Assembly (NCBI RefSeq): GCF_021165935.1
Contig: NZ_CP088953.1
Coordinates: forward strand, 1,493,001-1,557,000
DNA: 64,000 nt
Reading direction: 5' to 3'
Origin: Microbulbifer elongatus
GTDB lineage: Bacteria; Pseudomonadota; Gammaproteobacteria; Pseudomonadales; Cellvibrionaceae
The translations under genes were made by a program, and so were the position numbers. Below are positions 54,044 to 60,730 of the stretch, piece after piece (within the stretch, counting starts at the first letter, position 1; each line of letters begins with the position of its first letter). The notes under the pieces were generated by a model. The model had not been told where the DNA came from and made no database searches. It saw only the letters and a program-made list of their open reading frames with translations.

Positions 54044-54065
54044 GCTTTCTTCAAGGTTTATTGGC

Positions 54066-54179
54066 GGTCTCGATTCCGGTTAAAGCCTTGCGAGACACGC
54101 CGTGCACCCATCGTTGGGGGCTCTGCGAAAACATCCCTGTTTTCGAAGGTCTCGCAAGGCTTTAACCGGAATCGAAACC
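54066..54179 (+). repeat. Three-way-junction palindromic element, copy 2
   Basis: Arms 54066-54096 and 54149-54179 pair over 31 bases with one mismatch. The core ACGCCGTGCACCCATCGTTG...CTC (54097-54123) matches copy 1 (49364-49390) at most positions. A second hairpin CGAAAACA-TCCC-TGTTTTCG (54126-54145) has a stem unlike copy 1. The inner end of the arms, TTGCGAGAC, is shared with copy 1; outward the arms differ. It lies between the convergent genes proB and rpsT. Confidence 0.85.
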
Positions 54180-54213
54180 TATCGTCAGCGACTGGCAGTT
54201 TCTTTTATGCAAT

Positions 54214-54260: not shown

Positions 54261-54527
54261 TTAGGCAGCCAGCTTCTTGATCTGGGCATTCAGGCGGCTC
54301 TTATGGCGAGCGGCCTTATTCTTGTGAATGATGCCCTTGTCGGCCATGCGGTCGATAACCGGCACGGCAGCCTCGTAGGCAGTCTTGGCTTTTTCCGCAT
54401 CACCTGCATCAATGGCCGCAACTACCTTTTTGATGTAGGTGCGCACCATGGAGCGCAGGCTGGCGTTGTGATTGCGGCGCTTTTCGTTCTGGCGCGCGCG
54501 TTTCTTCGCTTGGGGTGAGTTGGCCAC
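54261..54527 (-). CDS. rpsT: 30S ribosomal protein S20
   Basis: 88 residues. The start is GTG at 54527 (AGGAG seven bases before it), giving [18 protein letters not shown]20 genes often use a weak start linked to autoregulation. An in-frame upstream ATG at 54596 adds an unrelated stretch lying across the promoter and is rejected. Helical Lys/Ala-rich protein of the 16S 5' domain. Confidence 0.95.
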
Positions 54528-54594
54528 CGGTTGCTCCTGTCTGGAATCTGTAAAATCTCGAACAATCGGGCCGGGGGCCCGTTTGGGACGCGAC

Positions 54595-54622: not shown

Positions 54623-54694
54623 CCGCTTGGGGTGCCAGTTTGTGACCATCTGGGCGGGGGGATAGGCCTCAATGGCTTGCCTGATGTCAAACCC

Positions 54695-54762
54695 CGTCAT
54701 GCCGGACTTGATCCGGCATCCAGCTCCGTGGCACTGGATTCCGGGTCAAGCCCGGAATGACG
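54695..54762. repeat. Dispersed-type inverted repeat (GTCATGCCGGAC class)
   Basis: Arms 54695-54723 and 54734-54762 are complementary at 25 of 29 positions around a 10-base loop. The wording (CGTCATGCCGGACTTGATCC and CCGGGTCAAGCCCGGAATGACG-like) resembles short intergenic repeats seen in many proteobacterial genomes; this is from recall. It lies between rpsT and the kinase gene. Confidence 0.6.
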
Positions 54763-54776
54763 AAGTGGTGACTCAT

Positions 54777-54808
54777 CGTAGGGTGGATAAGCGCAGCGCA
54801 TCCACCGC
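54777..54808. repeat. Short repeat-like hairpin at kinase gene end
   Basis: GGTGGAT (54782-54788) and ATCCACC (54800-54806) pair around an inner GCGC-A-GCGC. The sequence GTAGGGTGGATAAGCGCAGC resembles another widely dispersed bacterial repeat. It abuts the kinase stop codon at 54808-54810 and has no T-run on the minus strand. Confidence 0.5.
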
Positions 54809-56868
54809 TAACGCGGCAAAACCAAGGTGAAGATGACGCCGCGCCCGTCATCGCGGTTTGCGGCCTCCAGTGTCCCCTGGTGGAAGTCTGCGATCAGGCG
54901 CGCGATATGTAATCCCAACCCCAGGTGCCCCTCCTTGCCGCCGTCATTGCGTACCGAGACCAGGGAGTCAAAGAGTTTCTGCTCAAACCCTTCCGGCAGC
55001 GGTGGCCCGTCGTTGCTGACCTGGAGTATGTATTCTCTGGCCGTCGCTTCCAGTGCAAGCCGGATTTCTGAGCTCTCCGGCGCAAAGCTCACCGCGTTGT
55101 CAGCCAGCTTGTCCAGCAATTGTGCCAGCAATTCTGGCGCGCCGTAGTAGAGCTGCGGGCCTTCCGGCGCACGCAGCGTGAAGCCGTACTGGGGGTGGGC
55201 ATCTGCGTAGCTCTGGGTCAGCAGTTGCAGCAGATCGTGGAGGTCGAACTCCTCTCGTTCCGCCTGGTTGATGCTCGCTTCCAGGTGGTTGGCGGCGGAC
55301 AGGGCATTGAGAATGGACGACAGCCGCGCGCCACCCTCGGCGGCGCGTTCGGCGTAGCGCCGGCTGTCGCTGTCCAGCTCACCTGCGCTCAGGTTGTCCA
55401 GGGACGAGCGCATCACTGCGAGCGGCGTGCGCAGCTCGTGGGAGAGTTTGCTGGCGAGGCTGCGCAGATACTGGTGATAGTGATCCAGCTCGCGCAACAG
55501 ACTGGCGAAGGCCCGGTTCAGGGCGCCCAGCTCGTCATTCAGAATTGGTCTGGGGAAGTCGCCGCGCAGGCGGCCGCTGGCGTCCACCGCCGTTTGGGCT
55601 ACCTTGTGCAACTTGCGGATCCGCCACGACAGCCAGCTGGCGTAGCCGAGCAGCAGAAGCAGTACCAGACCCGCAGCACCGGCGGTGGTCAGCCACAGTC
55701 TGCGTGCGGCGGATTCGGTAAGAGACTGCAGGGCGCTGGTAGATTGGGCAGTGATCACCCGGCCCAGTAGCGGCCGCTCGATAATATTGTCCGCGCGGGT
55801 GACCACGGGCACGCTCACTGCGCCAATACGTTCGTCGCTGGTGGCACTTGTATCCGTGGTGGGGGCGCCGAACCACTGGCTGGCAGTTTCCCGGTTCCGG
55901 GTCAGGGCCGGGGGGAGCTGACTTTCGGGTAAGGGGGGGAGCTGGCCGGTGGCGAGGACCTGGCGATAAAACCAGTCTCTCAGCCAGTTGTGGTTGTCGT
56001 CAGCAGCTGCCACAGATCGGTCCCGGTGCCAGTCGCGGCCGGTGCGGGCGAGGACGAACCCCTCCTGGTCGACCACCGTCAGCTGCAATTCCGGTCGTGC
56101 GAAGTGCTCGAGCTCCTGCTGCAGCGCCGGCAAGGGCTCCACCAATGCCCCCGGTCGGCCATCCGCGGGCAGGGTGCTGGCGATACGCTGGGGAGTGCCG
56201 CCGTCGCTGCGCACGCGATCGAGAACCCGCACCGCCAGCTCGCCATCGGTGAGGGCGAACGGCATGGCCAGTTCCAGCTGGTAGCCCCTGGGAGAGGCGG
56301 TCCAGCGCCCGCGAATGCGCAGTTCACGCTCGTACTTGCCGCGCCGCGGGTTGTACCACATGGCCTGTACCGGCCCCTGGCTGGCCACCGGCAGAATATA
56401 GTGCTGGTGCGCGGTAAACAGCTCCACGGTGTCGCCGTTGGACACCCCGGCAAGGCGCGGATCGCGGTAGCTGGGGGTCTGGTCCTGAGCCGTGAGCAGT
56501 AAATAGACCCGCTCGCCGCGTCTGCCGAGGGTGACGCGGGCCTGTGGCTTGCCCTGCAGGTCGTCGAGTACTTTCGGAGGCAGCCCCTGCGCGCGCCACT
56601 CTTCTCCGTAGCCGTCCAGTACCGGGGCCTGCGCCAGTGGATGGAGATACAGCTGGGCACCCGGTGGTCGCCCGGTGCGCCGCGGATCCGGGGCAATCAG
56701 TTCCGGGGCGCTGGCCAGGCGGGCGGCGATGGCGTTGCCGGTCGCTTCCAGTGTCTGCATCTGCCCCTGGCTCAGGGCTTCATCCACCTGGCGCAGATAC
56801 TGGCAGCCCGCCCAGGGCAGGGCGAGGGTACACAGGCTCAGTAAAACCAGCTGGCTGCGAAGCTTCAT
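54808..56868 (-). CDS. pdsS: Sortase-system sensor histidine kinase (PdsS-like)
   Basis: 686 residues from the ATG at 56868; a longer frame upstream overlaps pdsR and is rejected. N-terminal helix (about 5-20) with LPWAGCQYLRQ. A periplasmic part of roughly 400 residues follows, beginning with a CBM9-like stretch (APVLDGYGEEW). A second helix near 410-430, a HAMP-like linker, the phospho-acceptor His477 in SHELRTP, N-box Asn591 and G-box GHLGLGLH (647-654) complete it. It resembles the kinase of the proteobacterial dedicated sortase system, by recall of that family. It starts 23 bases after pdsR. No sortase gene is adjacent. Confidence 0.7.
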   Translation of the reverse strand: MKLRSQLVLLSLCTLALPWAGCQYLRQVDEALSQGQMQTLEATGNAIAARLASAPELIAPDPRRTGRPPGAQLYLHPLAQAPVLDGYGEEWRAQGLPPKVLDDLQGKPQARVTLGRRGERVYLLLTAQDQTPSYRDPRLAGVSNGDTVELFTAHQHYILPVASQGPVQAMWYNPRRGKYERELRIRGRWTASPRGYQLELAMPFALTDGELAVRVLDRVRSDGGTPQRIASTLPADGRPGALVEPLPALQQELEHFARPELQLTVVDQEGFVLARTGRDWHRDRSVAAADDNHNWLRDWFYRQVLATGQLPPLPESQLPPALTRNRETASQWFGAPTTDTSATSDERIGAVSVPVVTRADNIIERPLLGRVITAQSTSALQSLTESAARRLWLTTAGAAGLVLLLLLGYASWLSWRIRKLHKVAQTAVDASGRLRGDFPRPILNDELGALNRAFASLLRELDHYHQYLRSLASKLSHELRTPLAVMRSSLDNLSAGELDSDSRRYAERAAEGGARLSSILNALSAANHLEASINQAEREEFDLHDLLQLLTQSYADAHPQYGFTLRAPEGPQLYYGAPELLAQLLDKLADNAVSFAPESSEIRLALEATAREYILQVSNDGPPLPEGFEQKLFDSLVSVRNDGGKEGHLGLGLHIARLIADFHQGTLEAANRDDGRGVIFTLVLPR

Positions 56869-56891
56869 TTCTCGGGGAGGCCCATGAATGT

Positions 56892-57584
56892 TTACACCTG
56901 CCAGCGGTAGCCCATGCCATAGGCGGTGGCAATGGCATCGAAGTGGCTGTCGACGGTCTGGAACTTGCGGCGGATACGTTTGACGTGGGAGGTGATGGTG
57001 TTGTCGTCCAGTACCACGCGAGCGGCTTCCATCAGCTGGCTGCGGGATTTGACGTGGCCCGGGCGTTTGGCCAGGGCGTGCACGATCCAGAACTCGGTTA
57101 CCGTGAGGTCCACGGGCTCGCCTTTCCAGTGGCAATGCAGCCGCGAGACATCCAGCTGCAGGTCGCCCTGAGTGATCACCTCCTCGTCACTGCCCGTCGA
57201 TTGCATCACGCTTACCCGGCGCAGCAGGGCGCTGATGCGCGCCTGCATATGGGGCAGGGAAATATCCTTGGTCAGGTAGTCATCGGCGCCCAGGCGCAGG
57301 CCGGAAATAATATCCAGCTCGGAGTCCCGCGCGGTCAGAAACAGAATAGGCAGGGTTGGCGCCATGGCGCGCAGTTCCCGGCACAGTTCAAAGCCCCCTT
57401 CGATTTCGGCGCCCAGCCCCACATCGATCACTGCCAGATCCGGCAGGCGCTGCTGGAAGGCGGCCAGAGCGTCCGGGCGCGTATGGTACAGGTTGACCTG
57501 GTAGCCGCTGCGGCGCAGGGCGTCGCGGTAATTTTCCGCGATGGCAATTTCATCTTCGACAATGGCGATGGTGGGGCTGCTCAT
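56892..57584 (-). CDS. pdsR: OmpR-type response regulator (PdsR-like)
   Basis: 230 residues. The receiver domain has acidic D11/E12, phospho-acceptor Asp54 (VIDVG), Thr84 and Lys106. The C-terminal winged helix spans about residues 130-230 (LTVTEFWIVHALAKRPGHVKS, ending YGMGYRWQV). Cognate regulator of the kinase that follows 23 bases later. The ribosome binding site before ATG 57584 is weak. A possible promoter is TTGCCT (57672-57667) and CATGAT (57649-57644), 17-base spacing. Confidence 0.78.
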   Translation of the reverse strand: MSSPTIAIVEDEIAIAENYRDALRRSGYQVNLYHTRPDALAAFQQRLPDLAVIDVGLGAEIEGGFELCRELRAMAPTLPILFLTARDSELDIISGLRLGADDYLTKDISLPHMQARISALLRRVSVMQSTGSDEEVITQGDLQLDVSRLHCHWKGEPVDLTVTEFWIVHALAKRPGHVKSRSQLMEAARVVLDDNTITSHVKRIRRKFQTVDSHFDAIATAYGMGYRWQV

Positions 57585-57713
57585 GGGCGTATTGTTATGA
57601 TTCCGGCCGAGAAAAAACGGATGATTGAAATTCGATGCGGAAAATCATGCCCGAAGTGTGCGAGGCAGGCAAAAGTAACTGGCGGCTTTTGGTGTGAAGC
57701 GGACCCTCAGTGT

Positions 57714-57743
57714 AAAAAAGCGCGCAGCTTTAAGATTGCGCGC
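57714..57743 (-). terminator. Terminator between pdsO and pdsR
   Basis: On the minus strand GCGCGCA (57743-57737) pairs with TGCGCGC (57726-57720) around a 10-base loop, then six T (57719-57714). It would end the pdsO transcript 95 bases after its stop and separate it from pdsR-pdsS. The remaining gap 57585-57838 holds no convincing gene. Confidence 0.75.
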
Positions 57744-57838
57744 AAGGTTACTGCTTACAGGGTTGCACTGGAGGCGCCGGTTGTCGCTTTTGCAGAGCGG
57801 GCAACCGGCACGGGGAAGCGGTTTGCCGGTATCGCGGC

Positions 57839-58549
57839 TCAGAAAGAGCCGGCGACGGTCTCCGGCATGCCGAAGTGGATGTCTACCCGGCGTTCGAGGG
57901 CATAGGCGTCCAGGTCACCTTTGCTCGCCTTGGACTGACTGGCACCCAGGGCGCGGCGTTCAATACGCTCGGGGGCTACGCCGTAGGCTTCCAGGGTACG
58001 CTGCACGCTCAGCGCGCGCTGATCGGAAAGTACATTGTTGTACCCGTCGCTGCCACGGGGATCGGAGTGGCCCTCCAGGTGTACCTGCAGCTGCGGGTGG
58101 CGGTTGAGGAAGTCGGCCATGGCAGCAACCTGCTGTTCCTGGGCTTCCTGCAGCTCGTCGTCCCCGGTGGTGAACAGCATCTGGAACTCCAGGCTTTCCA
58201 GCGCCAGTTCCTGGGCATCGTTGGCGGACAGTCGCGCCGCATCCAGCTGCTGTGCGAGGTTACCCAGTTCGGTACGGCTTTCAGTGAGTTGAGTTGCGAG
58301 CATGTCTGCCTCTTCTGCTTGCTTGATCTGTTCGCCCAGCCAGGCGCCACCGAGGGCGCCGGCGATAAATCCTACCGGGCCTCCCACGGCGGCGCCCGCA
58401 ACTGCGGCGCCGGTAAATACGGTGGCCTGCTTGGCCGGAGTCAGGGGGTCGCCCTGTAATGCTTTCTCGGTGTCAGTAGCGGCCTCAGCGGAAGCAATAG
58501 CATTCAGAGTCAGAGTGCTTACGGTTACTGCCATCAACAACTTTTTCAT
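57839..58549 (-). CDS. pdsO: OmpA-family protein (PdsO-like)
   Basis: 236 residues from ATG 58549, with AAGGAA eight bases upstream. Signal peptide MKKLLMAVTVSTLTLNAIAS with likely cleavage after SAEA. A Gly-zipper hydrophobic stretch (about residues 45-72, GAAVAGAAVGG) follows, then a coiled segment and a C-terminal OmpA peptidoglycan-binding domain (LEGHSDPRGSDGYN, LSDQRALSVQRTL). The combination of Gly-zipper and OmpA domain next to this regulator-kinase pair matches the OmpA component of proteobacterial dedicated sortase systems. Such domains tether the envelope to peptidoglycan. No sortase or target gene lies upstream. Confidence 0.72.
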   Translation of the reverse strand: MKKLLMAVTVSTLTLNAIASAEAATDTEKALQGDPLTPAKQATVFTGAAVAGAAVGGPVGFIAGALGGAWLGEQIKQAEEADMLATQLTESRTELGNLAQQLDAARLSANDAQELALESLEFQMLFTTGDDELQEAQEQQVAAMADFLNRHPQLQVHLEGHSDPRGSDGYNNVLSDQRALSVQRTLEAYGVAPERIERRALGASQSKASKGDLDAYALERRVDIHFGMPETVAGSF

Positions 58550-58746
58550 GATCGTGTTCCTTGCGATTGGATTGAAATGACTGCTCTTTGTTTCCGATCG
58601 GGTGCGTTTCCCGCTTCGGTTGAGTGTCATTTAAATCCCGCAAGGAGGCACTGACGTGGCGCCTCGGGGGCAAATTCCGCAACAATTATGGCGAAATGTG
58701 GCGAGCGCCCCTGTGACTCAGTTCAGCCTCTTGGAATAAGGCGGTC

Positions 58747-58887
58747 TCAGTGCCCGCGACGCCGGTAGCGCGGATCCCGTGGCCGATCGATTCGAACCCG
58801 AACCCGCTGGGGGCGGGGCCCGATAGCGACCGCGGCGTACAGCAGTACCGCCAGGATCAGTGCAATCAATAACGCGTTGATGGTCAT
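58747..58887 (-). CDS. Small membrane protein, 46 residues
   Basis: ATG at 58887 has a strong GAGGAGAG binding site six bases upstream; TGA at 58747-58749. The product is a single hydrophobic helix (INALLIALILAVLLYAAVAIG) followed by an Arg-rich tail (RVRVRIDRPRDPRYRRRGH). I do not recognise the family. Helix plus basic tail implies the C-terminus stays in the cytoplasm. It lies 197 bases upstream of pdsO on the same strand. A possible -10 TATACT is at 58947-58942 without a clear -35. Confidence 0.55.
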   Translation of the reverse strand: MTINALLIALILAVLLYAAVAIGPRPQRVRVRIDRPRDPRYRRRGH

Positions 58888-59083: not shown

Positions 59084-60730
59084 GTGGCAGGATCTTCGCC
59101 AAACCAGACGCCGAATCCCCAGTCGGAGACCTCCGCGCAGGCACCGCAGGCTCAAAAAGATAGTCCGCAGCGGGGGTTGTTGCGCGGAACCTCGGTGGTG
59201 GGTGGTGCCACTTTGTTATCGCGGGTCATGGGGCTGGCGCGGGATATCGTATTTGCACGCCTCACTGGCGCCAGCGATGCCGCGGACGCGTTTTTCGTGG
59301 CGTTCAAGATCCCCAACTTTTTCCGTCGACTGTTTGCCGAAGGTGCGTTTTCCCAGGCGTTCGTGCCGGTGCTGGCGGAGTATCGGCAGAACGGCGGGAT
59401 TGCGGCAGTGCGCGAGCTGAATGACCGCGTGGCCGGTGCACTCGGTGGCACGCTGTTGCTGGTGACCCTGTTCGGTGTGCTGTGCGCGCCCCTGGTCACG
59501 GGAATATTCGCCTTCGGCTGGTGGTGGGGCGGCAATGAGCCGGAAAAATTCGCCCTCGCCACAGAAATGTTGCGGATTACCTTTCCCTATCTGATGCTGA
59601 TCTCGCTCACCGGCTTTGCCGGGGCCATGTTGAACAGCTTCGATCGCTTCGCCATTCCGGCGTTGACCCCGGTGCTGCTCAATCTGGTGTTGATCGGTGC
59701 GGCGACCATCGCCGCGGGCTGGTTCGAGCCCCCGGTTATGGCGCTGGCCTGGGGGGTATTGGCGGCCGGGGTGGTGCAGCTGTTATTCCAGATCCCGTTT
59801 CTGGTGCAGCAGGGACTGCTGCCGCGACCAAAGTGGGACTGGCAGTATCCCGGAGTGCGCAAGATCCTGCGGTTGATGGCCCCCGCCATCTTTGGCGTGT
59901 CCGTCACCCAGATCAGCCTGGTGCTGGATACGGTGCTGGCGTCCTTTCTACCTACCGGGTCGGTAACCTGGCTGTATTTCTCCGATCGTCTCGTCGAGCT
60001 GCCGCTGGGGGTGTTCGGGGTGGCTGTGGCCACCGTGATCCTGCCCAACCTCTCCCGCCAGCATGCGGGAGGGGATCCGCAGAAGTTCCGCCACACCATT
60101 GACTGGGCCCTGCGCAGTGTCACCCTGATTGCCCTGCCTGCGGCGGTGGCACTGTTTGTGCTGGCCGAGCCGCTGCTGACGGTACTGTTCCAGTACGGCA
60201 ACATGACCCCGAGAGATATGGACATGGCAGCCTGGTCGCTGCGCGCCTATACCTTTGGGCTGCTTTCGTTCATGCTGATCAAGGTGTTGGCGCCGGGGTA
60301 TTTTGCCCGCCAGGATACGGCGACACCGGTCAAGTTTGGCCTGATAGCCATCGCCTCGAAGATGGTGCTGAGCTTTCTGTTCGTGATCCCGCTCAACTAC
60401 TACTTCCAGCTTGGTCATATGGGGCTCGCGGCGGCCACCGCCGGGCAGGCGGCGATCAACGCGTTTCTGCTCTACCGCGGATTGCGGCAGGGTGGTGTGT
60501 ACGCACCGGAAGCCGGGTGGCGCGGATTTCTGGTGCGACTGATACTGGCCAATCTGGCGATGGCGGCGGTGCTGCTGGGGATTCTGCACTATTGGCCCGA
60601 GTGGCATCTGTGGTCCTGGTGGGAGCGTGCCCTGCGGATGGCGGCGCTGGTTGCGGCAGGCGCGGGCACTTACGGATTGATACTGGCGGCCAGTGGCCTG
60701 CGACCGCGGCACTTTCGCGCGGCTTCCTGA
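59084..60730 (+). CDS. murJ: Lipid II flippase MurJ
   Basis: 548-residue inner-membrane protein of the MOP superfamily with about 14 helices. The N-terminal cytoplasmic tail is Pro/Gln-rich. Conserved segments include LSRVMGLARDIVFAR, AFFVAFKIPNFFRRLFAEG and AFSQAFVPVL. It moves the peptidoglycan precursor across the membrane. The GTG start at 59084 gives the longest sensible N-terminus; a later start is possible. murJ-ribF-ileS is the normal gammaproteobacterial order. Confidence 0.93.
   Translation: MAGSSPNQTPNPQSETSAQAPQAQKDSPQRGLLRGTSVVGGATLLSRVMGLARDIVFARLTGASDAADAFFVAFKIPNFFRRLFAEGAFSQAFVPVLAEYRQNGGIAAVRELNDRVAGALGGTLLLVTLFGVLCAPLVTGIFAFGWWWGGNEPEKFALATEMLRITFPYLMLISLTGFAGAMLNSFDRFAIPALTPVLLNLVLIGAATIAAGWFEPPVMALAWGVLAAGVVQLLFQIPFLVQQGLLPRPKWDWQYPGVRKILRLMAPAIFGVSVTQISLVLDTVLASFLPTGSVTWLYFSDRLVELPLGVFGVAVATVILPNLSRQHAGGDPQKFRHTIDWALRSVTLIALPAAVALFVLAEPLLTVLFQYGNMTPRDMDMAAWSLRAYTFGLLSFMLIKVLAPGYFARQDTATPVKFGLIAIASKMVLSFLFVIPLNYYFQLGHMGLAAATAGQAAINAFLLYRGLRQGGVYAPEAGWRGFLVRLILANLAMAAVLLGILHYWPEWHLWSWWERALRMAALVAAGAGTYGLILAASGLRPRHFRAAS

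What the first reader, a model, noticed from the sequence alone, without database searches (positions are those of the whole stretch)
54808..58549. Sortase-type regulatory module without its sortase
The kinase, regulator and OmpA-family gene have the layout of the pdsS, pdsR and pdsO parts of the proteobacterial dedicated sortase system. In that system a variant class of sortase and one VIT/VWA-type target protein normally sit beside them. Here the flanks are rpsT on one side and a 46-codon gene plus murJ on the other, with no sortase (no TLxTC-type frame) and no sortase target. Either the sortase and target moved elsewhere in the genome, or the sensor branch survives alone with a new output.
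Basis: partly seen in the sequence, partly recalled or inferred. Interest (0 to 1): 0.72.

Follow-up and report, generated by a model that had tools for sequence, protein, structure and literature searches.

The report
Split sortase regulon with shared box
A sensor and regulator pair that seemed to have lost its protein-anchoring enzyme has been parted from it instead: enzyme and target lie about 176,000 bases away behind the same DNA control sequence as the gene beside the sensor, so the parts probably still work as one system.

Summary
The regulator passes TIGR03787; kinase and OmpA gene match TIGR03785 and TIGR03789 over nearly their whole length but below cut-off. The same chromosome carries a class GN sortase and its VIT/VWA target, both over cut-off, about 176 kb away. 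The split is genus-wide: 35 of 37 same-genus genomes have all three, on different contigs or at least 168 kb apart.

A 19-bp direct repeat, found independently in target and pdsO promoters, links the halves; the own genome has two exact copies, at those two promoters. Four related families with intact clusters carry it between regulator and target; a fresh search of 73 other pdsR upstreams returns the same motif (35 of 73 pass a genus matrix). I read it as the PdsR site, so the parts remain one regulon in trans (inferred, not assayed).

In eight congeners a copy precedes a GDPD-like gene, in one a polysaccharide deacetylase. PdsS's periplasmic part models as a Cache domain with an inserted CBM9 fold, suggesting glycan sensing.

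The parts
54808..56868 (-). pdsS-type sensor histidine kinase, 686 aa from the probable ATG at 56868; long periplasmic sensor (Cache-like frame with an inserted CBM9-fold domain, residues about 71-245), then HAMP, HisKA, HATPase
56892..57584 (-). pdsR-type OmpR/PhoB-family response regulator, 230 aa
   Evidence: TIGR03787 381.1 bits, above cut-off 335.7
57714..57743 (-). hairpin (GCGCGC arms, 12-base loop) plus six T after pdsO: likely terminator that makes pdsO its own unit
   Evidence: read; hairpin plus T-run in 23 of 27 congener loci, against a mean of 0.09 and a maximum of 2 in 100 shuffles; the consensus scan, limited to loops of 3-8, did not list it
57839..58549 (-). pdsO-type gene: signal-peptide-like start, glycine-rich stretch, OmpA-like domain, 236 aa
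   Evidence: TIGR03789 105 bits, below cut-off 152.2; Pfam OmpA 58.8 bits, over cut-off
58630..58635 (-). TTTAAA, -10-like element 48 bp after the box
   Evidence: TTTAAT with at most one mismatch at 48-49 bp in 27 of 27 congeners; shuffled tails give 1.8%
58684..58702 (-). proposed PdsR box GCCACATTTCGCCATAATT before pdsO
   Evidence: one of only two exact pattern matches in the own 4.2-Mb genome, the other (C1:1723673-1723691) before the distant target gene
58747..58887 (-). 46-codon membrane-type small frame upstream of the pdsO promoter; role unknown, not clearly part of the regulon
   Evidence: matched in 27 of 27 congener loci examined; no NCBIfam or Pfam family
54261..54530 (-). rpsT, one border of the stretch that outgroups lack
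   Evidence: within about 260 bp of murJ, no pds genes between, in 8 of 11 outgroup genomes; not found in the flank of the other three
59084..60730 (+). murJ, other border

Best explanation
This is the command half of a dedicated class GN sortase system that has been broken into two places in this genus. PdsS, a sensor kinase whose periplasmic Cache-like domain carries a CBM9-fold insertion, senses an envelope or glycan state and phosphorylates PdsR. PdsR binds the 10-bp-period direct repeat GCCAYAWTTYGYCAYAWTT and activates promoters with a TTTAAT-like -10 element 48-50 bp downstream. In this genome those are pdsO, next door, and the target-sortase operon about 176 kb away, so the halves remain one regulon in trans. 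The sortase then processes the C-terminal signal of its single VIT/VWA target, while PdsO, an OmpA-type protein, links the assembly to peptidoglycan. Shown by computation: presence and distance of the parts, the split in the genus, the shared box, promoter geometry, co-occurrence with PdsR, the sensor fold. Inferred: that PdsR is the protein that binds the box, that it activates, that the signal is a glycan, and what target and PdsO do.
Confidence: 0.8

Rival explanations
1. The regulatory branch has been orphaned here and drives a new output unrelated to sortase.
For: No sortase or target in the window or the next 10 kb. Something close to this exists in congener G021, where sortase and most of the target gene are gone while pdsRS and pdsO remain.
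Against: Sortase and target are present in the own genome over cut-off, and the target carries the same box as pdsO.
Confidence: 0.05
2. The box belongs to another, perhaps global, regulator; PdsRS and the sortase operon are only controlled by it.
For: No binding test. pdsR's own upstream in the genus lacks the box, and 38 of 73 class pdsR upstreams do not pass the matrix threshold.
Against: Two exact sites in 4.2 Mb is far from a global regulon. The element follows PdsR across genomes: 40 of 42 with, 2 of 16 without. It lies directly between pdsR and the target gene in intact clusters and on the strand facing away from pdsR (35 forward, 0 reverse of 73).
Confidence: 0.12
3. PdsRS senses sortase or target traffic itself (a processing or secretion fault) rather than a glycan.
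For: The target promoter is boxed in 34 of 35 congeners that have the target and in all six outgroups with the regulator.
Against: The sensor has a CBM9-type fold inserted in a Cache domain; pdsRS persists without sortase in G021 and without one in the fetched stretch in 36 of 61 class loci.
Confidence: 0.25

Closest known systems
Proteobacterial dedicated sortase system (TIGR03784 class GN sortase, TIGR03785 kinase, TIGR03787 regulator, TIGR03788 target, TIGR03789 PdsO)
   Same: A match to all five models is present in the genome; sortase, target and regulator pass their curated cut-offs.
   Different: Parts lie in two places about 176 kb apart instead of one cluster; kinase and PdsO score below cut-off; a shared promoter element takes the place of physical linkage.
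CreBC two-component system
   Same: CreB and CreC are the next-best NCBIfam matches of regulator and kinase (185 and 143.7 bits); CreB is recalled to bind a direct repeat (cre tag TTCACnnnnnnTTCAC).
   Different: Far below the CreB and CreC cut-offs (273 and 356); the box found here has another sequence and a period of 10 bp instead of 11.
WalK/YycG cell-wall sensor kinases of Firmicutes
CBM9 carbohydrate-binding modules of xylanases (1i82, 7nwn)
   Different: Part of a sensor kinase; one recalled ligand-binding tryptophan is not conserved.

Membership tests
Proteobacterial dedicated sortase system | Response regulator over TIGR03787 cut-off | tested here: met
   381.1 bits, cut-off 335.7
Proteobacterial dedicated sortase system | Histidine kinase over TIGR03785 cut-off | tested here: not met
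   517 bits full length, cut-off 612.2. Kinases beside intact clusters score 631.8 (G052, passes) and 555.1 (G037, fails)
Proteobacterial dedicated sortase system | OmpA-like protein over TIGR03789 cut-off | tested here: not met
   105 bits, cut-off 152.2; 0 of 58 genomes searched have a match over it
Proteobacterial dedicated sortase system | Class GN sortase in the genome (TIGR03784) | tested here: met
   202.4 bits, cut-off 158.25; columns of the His, Cys and Arg expected for sortases (roles recalled) invariant in 36 of 36 aligned
Proteobacterial dedicated sortase system | Single VIT/VWA target (TIGR03788) | tested here: met
   One match in the genome, 772.9 bits, cut-off 551.65; Pfam VIT and VWA
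Proteobacterial dedicated sortase system | Sortase and target encoded beside the regulators | tested here: not met
   About 176 kb apart
Proteobacterial dedicated sortase system | LPXTG-like sorting signal cleaved by the sortase | not testable with these tools
   The model covers the target up to 625/629; cleavage needs experiment
CBM9 carbohydrate-binding module | CBM9 fold | tested here: met
CBM9 carbohydrate-binding module | Pfam CBM9_1 match | tested here: inconclusive
   29 of 66 sensors match at E <= 0.1 (best 4.3e-9); the window kinase does not
CBM9 carbohydrate-binding module | Ligand-binding aromatic residues | tested here: inconclusive
   The position I recall as Trp71 is not aromatic in the aligned profile; Trp175 (recalled) lies outside the alignment
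WalK-like Cache sensor | Cache fold with WalK as nearest solved relative | tested here: inconclusive

The most novel reading that the evidence does not exclude
PdsRS is not in essence a sortase regulator. It is a class-wide gammaproteobacterial glycan or cell-wall sensing two-component system defined by the PdsR box. Its most persistent output is the OmpA-type PdsO; the sortase-target cassette, GDPD phosphodiesterases and a polysaccharide deacetylase are detachable outputs that plug in by acquiring the box. Cluster splitting and sortase loss are then ordinary events, and many genomes annotated as having a dedicated sortase regulator may have no sortase.
Probability: 0.45. Interest if true: 0.72.

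Novelty: new variant of a known kind. Interest (0 to 1): 0.58.

Why it matters
The role of class GN sortases in Gram-negative bacteria is described as unknown in the one paper of the held library that uses the term (PMC10581121, passages), and I found nothing on what switches them on. A specific DNA element, its likely protein, a short list of controlled genes and a sensor-domain fold turn an annotation-only system into one that can be tested with a gel shift and a deletion. It also shows that 'regulator without sortase', concluded from one locus, can be overturned by following a promoter element through the genome.

Tried and rejected
Rejected: that the sortase was lost; that a misread boundary hides it; that the box directly autoregulates pdsR in the genus (0 of 27 upstreams), where a hairpin plus T-run lies after pdsO in 23 of 27 loci.

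Led nowhere or was limited: the genome-contig scan with the regulator alignment used a pattern common to many regulators; of the 80 loci kept only three (L193-L195, 59-71% identity) look like PdsR, the rest being at 39% or less. TIGR03789 is a weak test of pdsO, since none of 58 genomes has a match over its cut-off. The box test on G037's pdsO-like gene is weak (score 5.3, 7 of 2000 shuffles reach it; no match at 2 mismatches), although it shows the same GATCA variant as that genome's target box. Among 12 extra sites in congeners, three (G001, G022, G033) precede no convincing gene. Which half moved could not be polarised: rpsT and murJ are neighbours in 8 of 11 outgroups, but purC, which borders the target here, is not beside the pds genes in any of the 4 outgroups with a purC match either. 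Literature searches (the lists were capped at 20 of 400, 20 of 1,539 and 15 of 40 papers) found no paper on a PdsR box, its regulon or a split system. Papers: PMC3237569, PMC10581121, PMC12114352 and PMC12620267 were seen in passages only; the 2024 Shewanella algae paper on pdsS that two of them cite (PMC11580497) is not held, so I saw its title only; all others were seen in search listings.
Full report
What is there. The three genes lie on the minus strand at 54808-56868 (kinase, probable start ATG at 56868), 56892-57584 (regulator) and 57839-58549 (OmpA-family), between rpsT and a 46-codon frame followed by murJ. Against NCBIfam the regulator is a confident TIGR03787 (381.1 bits, cut-off 335.7); the kinase covers all of TIGR03785 but reaches only 517 of the required 612.2 bits; the OmpA gene covers TIGR03789 at 105 of 152.2 bits. 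No sortase or target is in the window or the next 10 kb.

The sortase is elsewhere. The window's genome is one contig of 4,196,952 bases. It holds one class GN sortase over cut-off at 1726227-1726745 and one target over cut-off directly before it at 1724060-1726000, 176 kb from the regulator. The target has VIT and VWA domains. The columns of the sortase His, Cys and Arg (catalytic roles recalled) are invariant in 36 of 36 aligned relatives.

The split is a genus trait. Of 37 genomes of the genus including the own one, 35 have regulator, sortase and target; G007 (80% complete) has none of them, and G021 has the regulator without sortase and without a target over cut-off. In the 35, regulator and sortase are on different contigs in 22; in the 13 where both lie on one contig they are 168-240 kb apart in 11 and 1.4 and 2.1 Mb apart in two. 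In four outgroup families (G037, G039, G052, G054) the cluster is intact, with kinase-regulator divergent from target-sortase; in two more (G045, G056) it is split over contigs. rpsT and murJ are neighbours in 8 of 11 outgroup genomes examined; in the other three rpsT was not found in the flank. Trees of regulator, target and sortase (19 congeners, 5 outgroups, 24 class loci) each give a monophyletic genus (support 1.0, 1.0, 0.997). The nearest clade is made of lineages with intact clusters: G039, G052 and L193 for the regulator (support 0.78), the same plus G037 for the target (0.84), L193 alone for the sortase (0.90); branches beyond are partly weak, down to 0.27. This fits one ancestral cluster that was broken up.

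A shared promoter element. Upstream regions of the target gene (27 of 35 congener loci) and of pdsO (27 of 36) were searched separately. Both gave the same 10-bp-period direct repeat: GCCAcAATTCGCCAtAATTgac and tGCCAtAtTTCGCCAtAATTGc. A matrix from one set recognises 27 of 27 of the other above a 99.9% shuffle threshold and none on the reverse strand; pdsR's own upstream gives 0 of 27. A TTTAAT-like -10 element (one mismatch allowed, looked for 35-70 bp after the box) follows the box by 48-49 bp in 27 of 27 pdsO promoters and by 49-50 bp in 20 of 27 target promoters, against about 2% in shuffled tails; in the other seven target promoters, the own one among them, my stretch ends at that very point because the start codon chosen lies there. 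In the own genome the pattern GCCAYAWTTYGYCAYAWTT has two exact matches in 4.2 Mb: window 58684-58702 before pdsO, and 1723673-1723691 before the target. Allowing two mismatches adds one site; the backward control pattern gives one.

The element follows the regulator. At up to one mismatch in 58 genomes, 40 of 42 with PdsR have a match, against 2 of 16 without; the backward control gives 20 matches over the 58 genomes against 90 for the pattern, by my count of the rows. By position it precedes pdsO in 35 of 36 congeners with the regulator (missing in G012) and the target in 34 of 35 with a target (missing in G022). In the four intact outgroups it sits between regulator and target, facing the target; the two split outgroups have it before the target; G052 and G045 also have it before a pdsO-like gene elsewhere in the genome; G045's regulator upstream lacks it. 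In a wider sample 71 of 369 genomes of the class have the regulator, 58 of them over the cut-off. On up to 400 bp upstream of 73 regulators (70 of these plus L193-L195, none from the genus; one pair near-identical) a fresh motif search returned ttGCCAtAaTTc.TCAt.at with log-likelihood 369 against 76 and 74 for two shuffles. A matrix from the genus scored 35 of 73 above the 99% shuffle threshold on the strand facing away from pdsR and 0 of 73 on the other; by group, 17 of 25 with target or sortase in the stretch and 18 of 48 without. So the element is widespread but not universal.

More outputs. Of 12 extra sites of up to one mismatch in congeners (the remnant site of G021 not counted), eight precede a gene of one kind; five of these eight were given to Pfam and all five match GDPD, the other three look alike in sequence. 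One (G027) precedes a polysaccharide deacetylase, and three precede no convincing gene.

A sensor branch that did survive alone. G021 keeps regulator, kinase, pdsO and a pdsO box with one mismatch. At the old target site a box with one mismatch and about the first 60 codons of the target remain; tblastn finds no more of target or sortase in the 16-kb stretch, and the next gene looks like aceE by sequence. Class-wide, 36 of 61 regulator loci with at least 4.5 kb on the divergent side show no target or sortase in the fetched stretch; seven of those 36 are below the TIGR03787 cut-off. Whether these genomes have a sortase elsewhere is open.

Mechanism. Best supported: PdsS senses an envelope or glycan state, PdsR binds the repeat, and pdsO plus the distant target-sortase operon are switched together; the sortase processes its single target and PdsO provides a peptidoglycan link. 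Binding, activation and ligand are inferences.

Literature. [quoted passage not shown] PMC10581121 (passages) says the role of class GN sortases in Gram-negative organisms is unknown. [quoted passage not shown] That fits a cell-envelope role and means that pdsS itself has been studied. I found no paper on a PdsR box, its regulon or a split system in the library held; subscription journals are largely missing there.

Noticed in passing
58747-58887 (-): A 46-codon membrane-type small frame between the pdsO promoter and murJ, matched in 27 of 27 congener loci examined; no family match; role unknown.
   Followed up: partly
54060-54190: Long inverted repeat (arms of about 30 bases containing GCCTTGCGAGAC, read by eye) between the gene before rpsT and rpsT.
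   Followed up: no
54690-54770: REP-like palindrome (ATGCCGGACTTGATCCGGCAT ... GGGTCAAGCCCGGAATGAC, read by eye) between rpsT and pdsS.
   Followed up: no
L176, L177, L179, L180, L181, L183, L184, L187: GDPD-like phosphodiesterase genes led by a PdsR box (up to one mismatch) in eight congeners; five tested in Pfam, all GDPD.
   Followed up: partly
L178:3078-3908: Polysaccharide deacetylase gene led by an exact PdsR box in congener G027.
   Followed up: partly
L110:7461-8111 (-): 216-aa protein without Pfam match, divergent from pdsR and led by an exact box in G056, whose sortase is on another contig.
   Followed up: partly
L133:7992-8499: Decayed target gene with box in G021; the rest of the target and the sortase are not found.
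   Followed up: yes
L105 (G021:C6:216780-218387): A second VIT/VWA protein, below the TIGR03788 cut-off, occurs in G021 and, as further matches, in seven other congeners, not beside their class GN sortase.
   Followed up: no
L011:7246-9678: The own target protein has a long arginine-rich tail after its C-terminal membrane segment; not checked in the other species.
   Followed up: no
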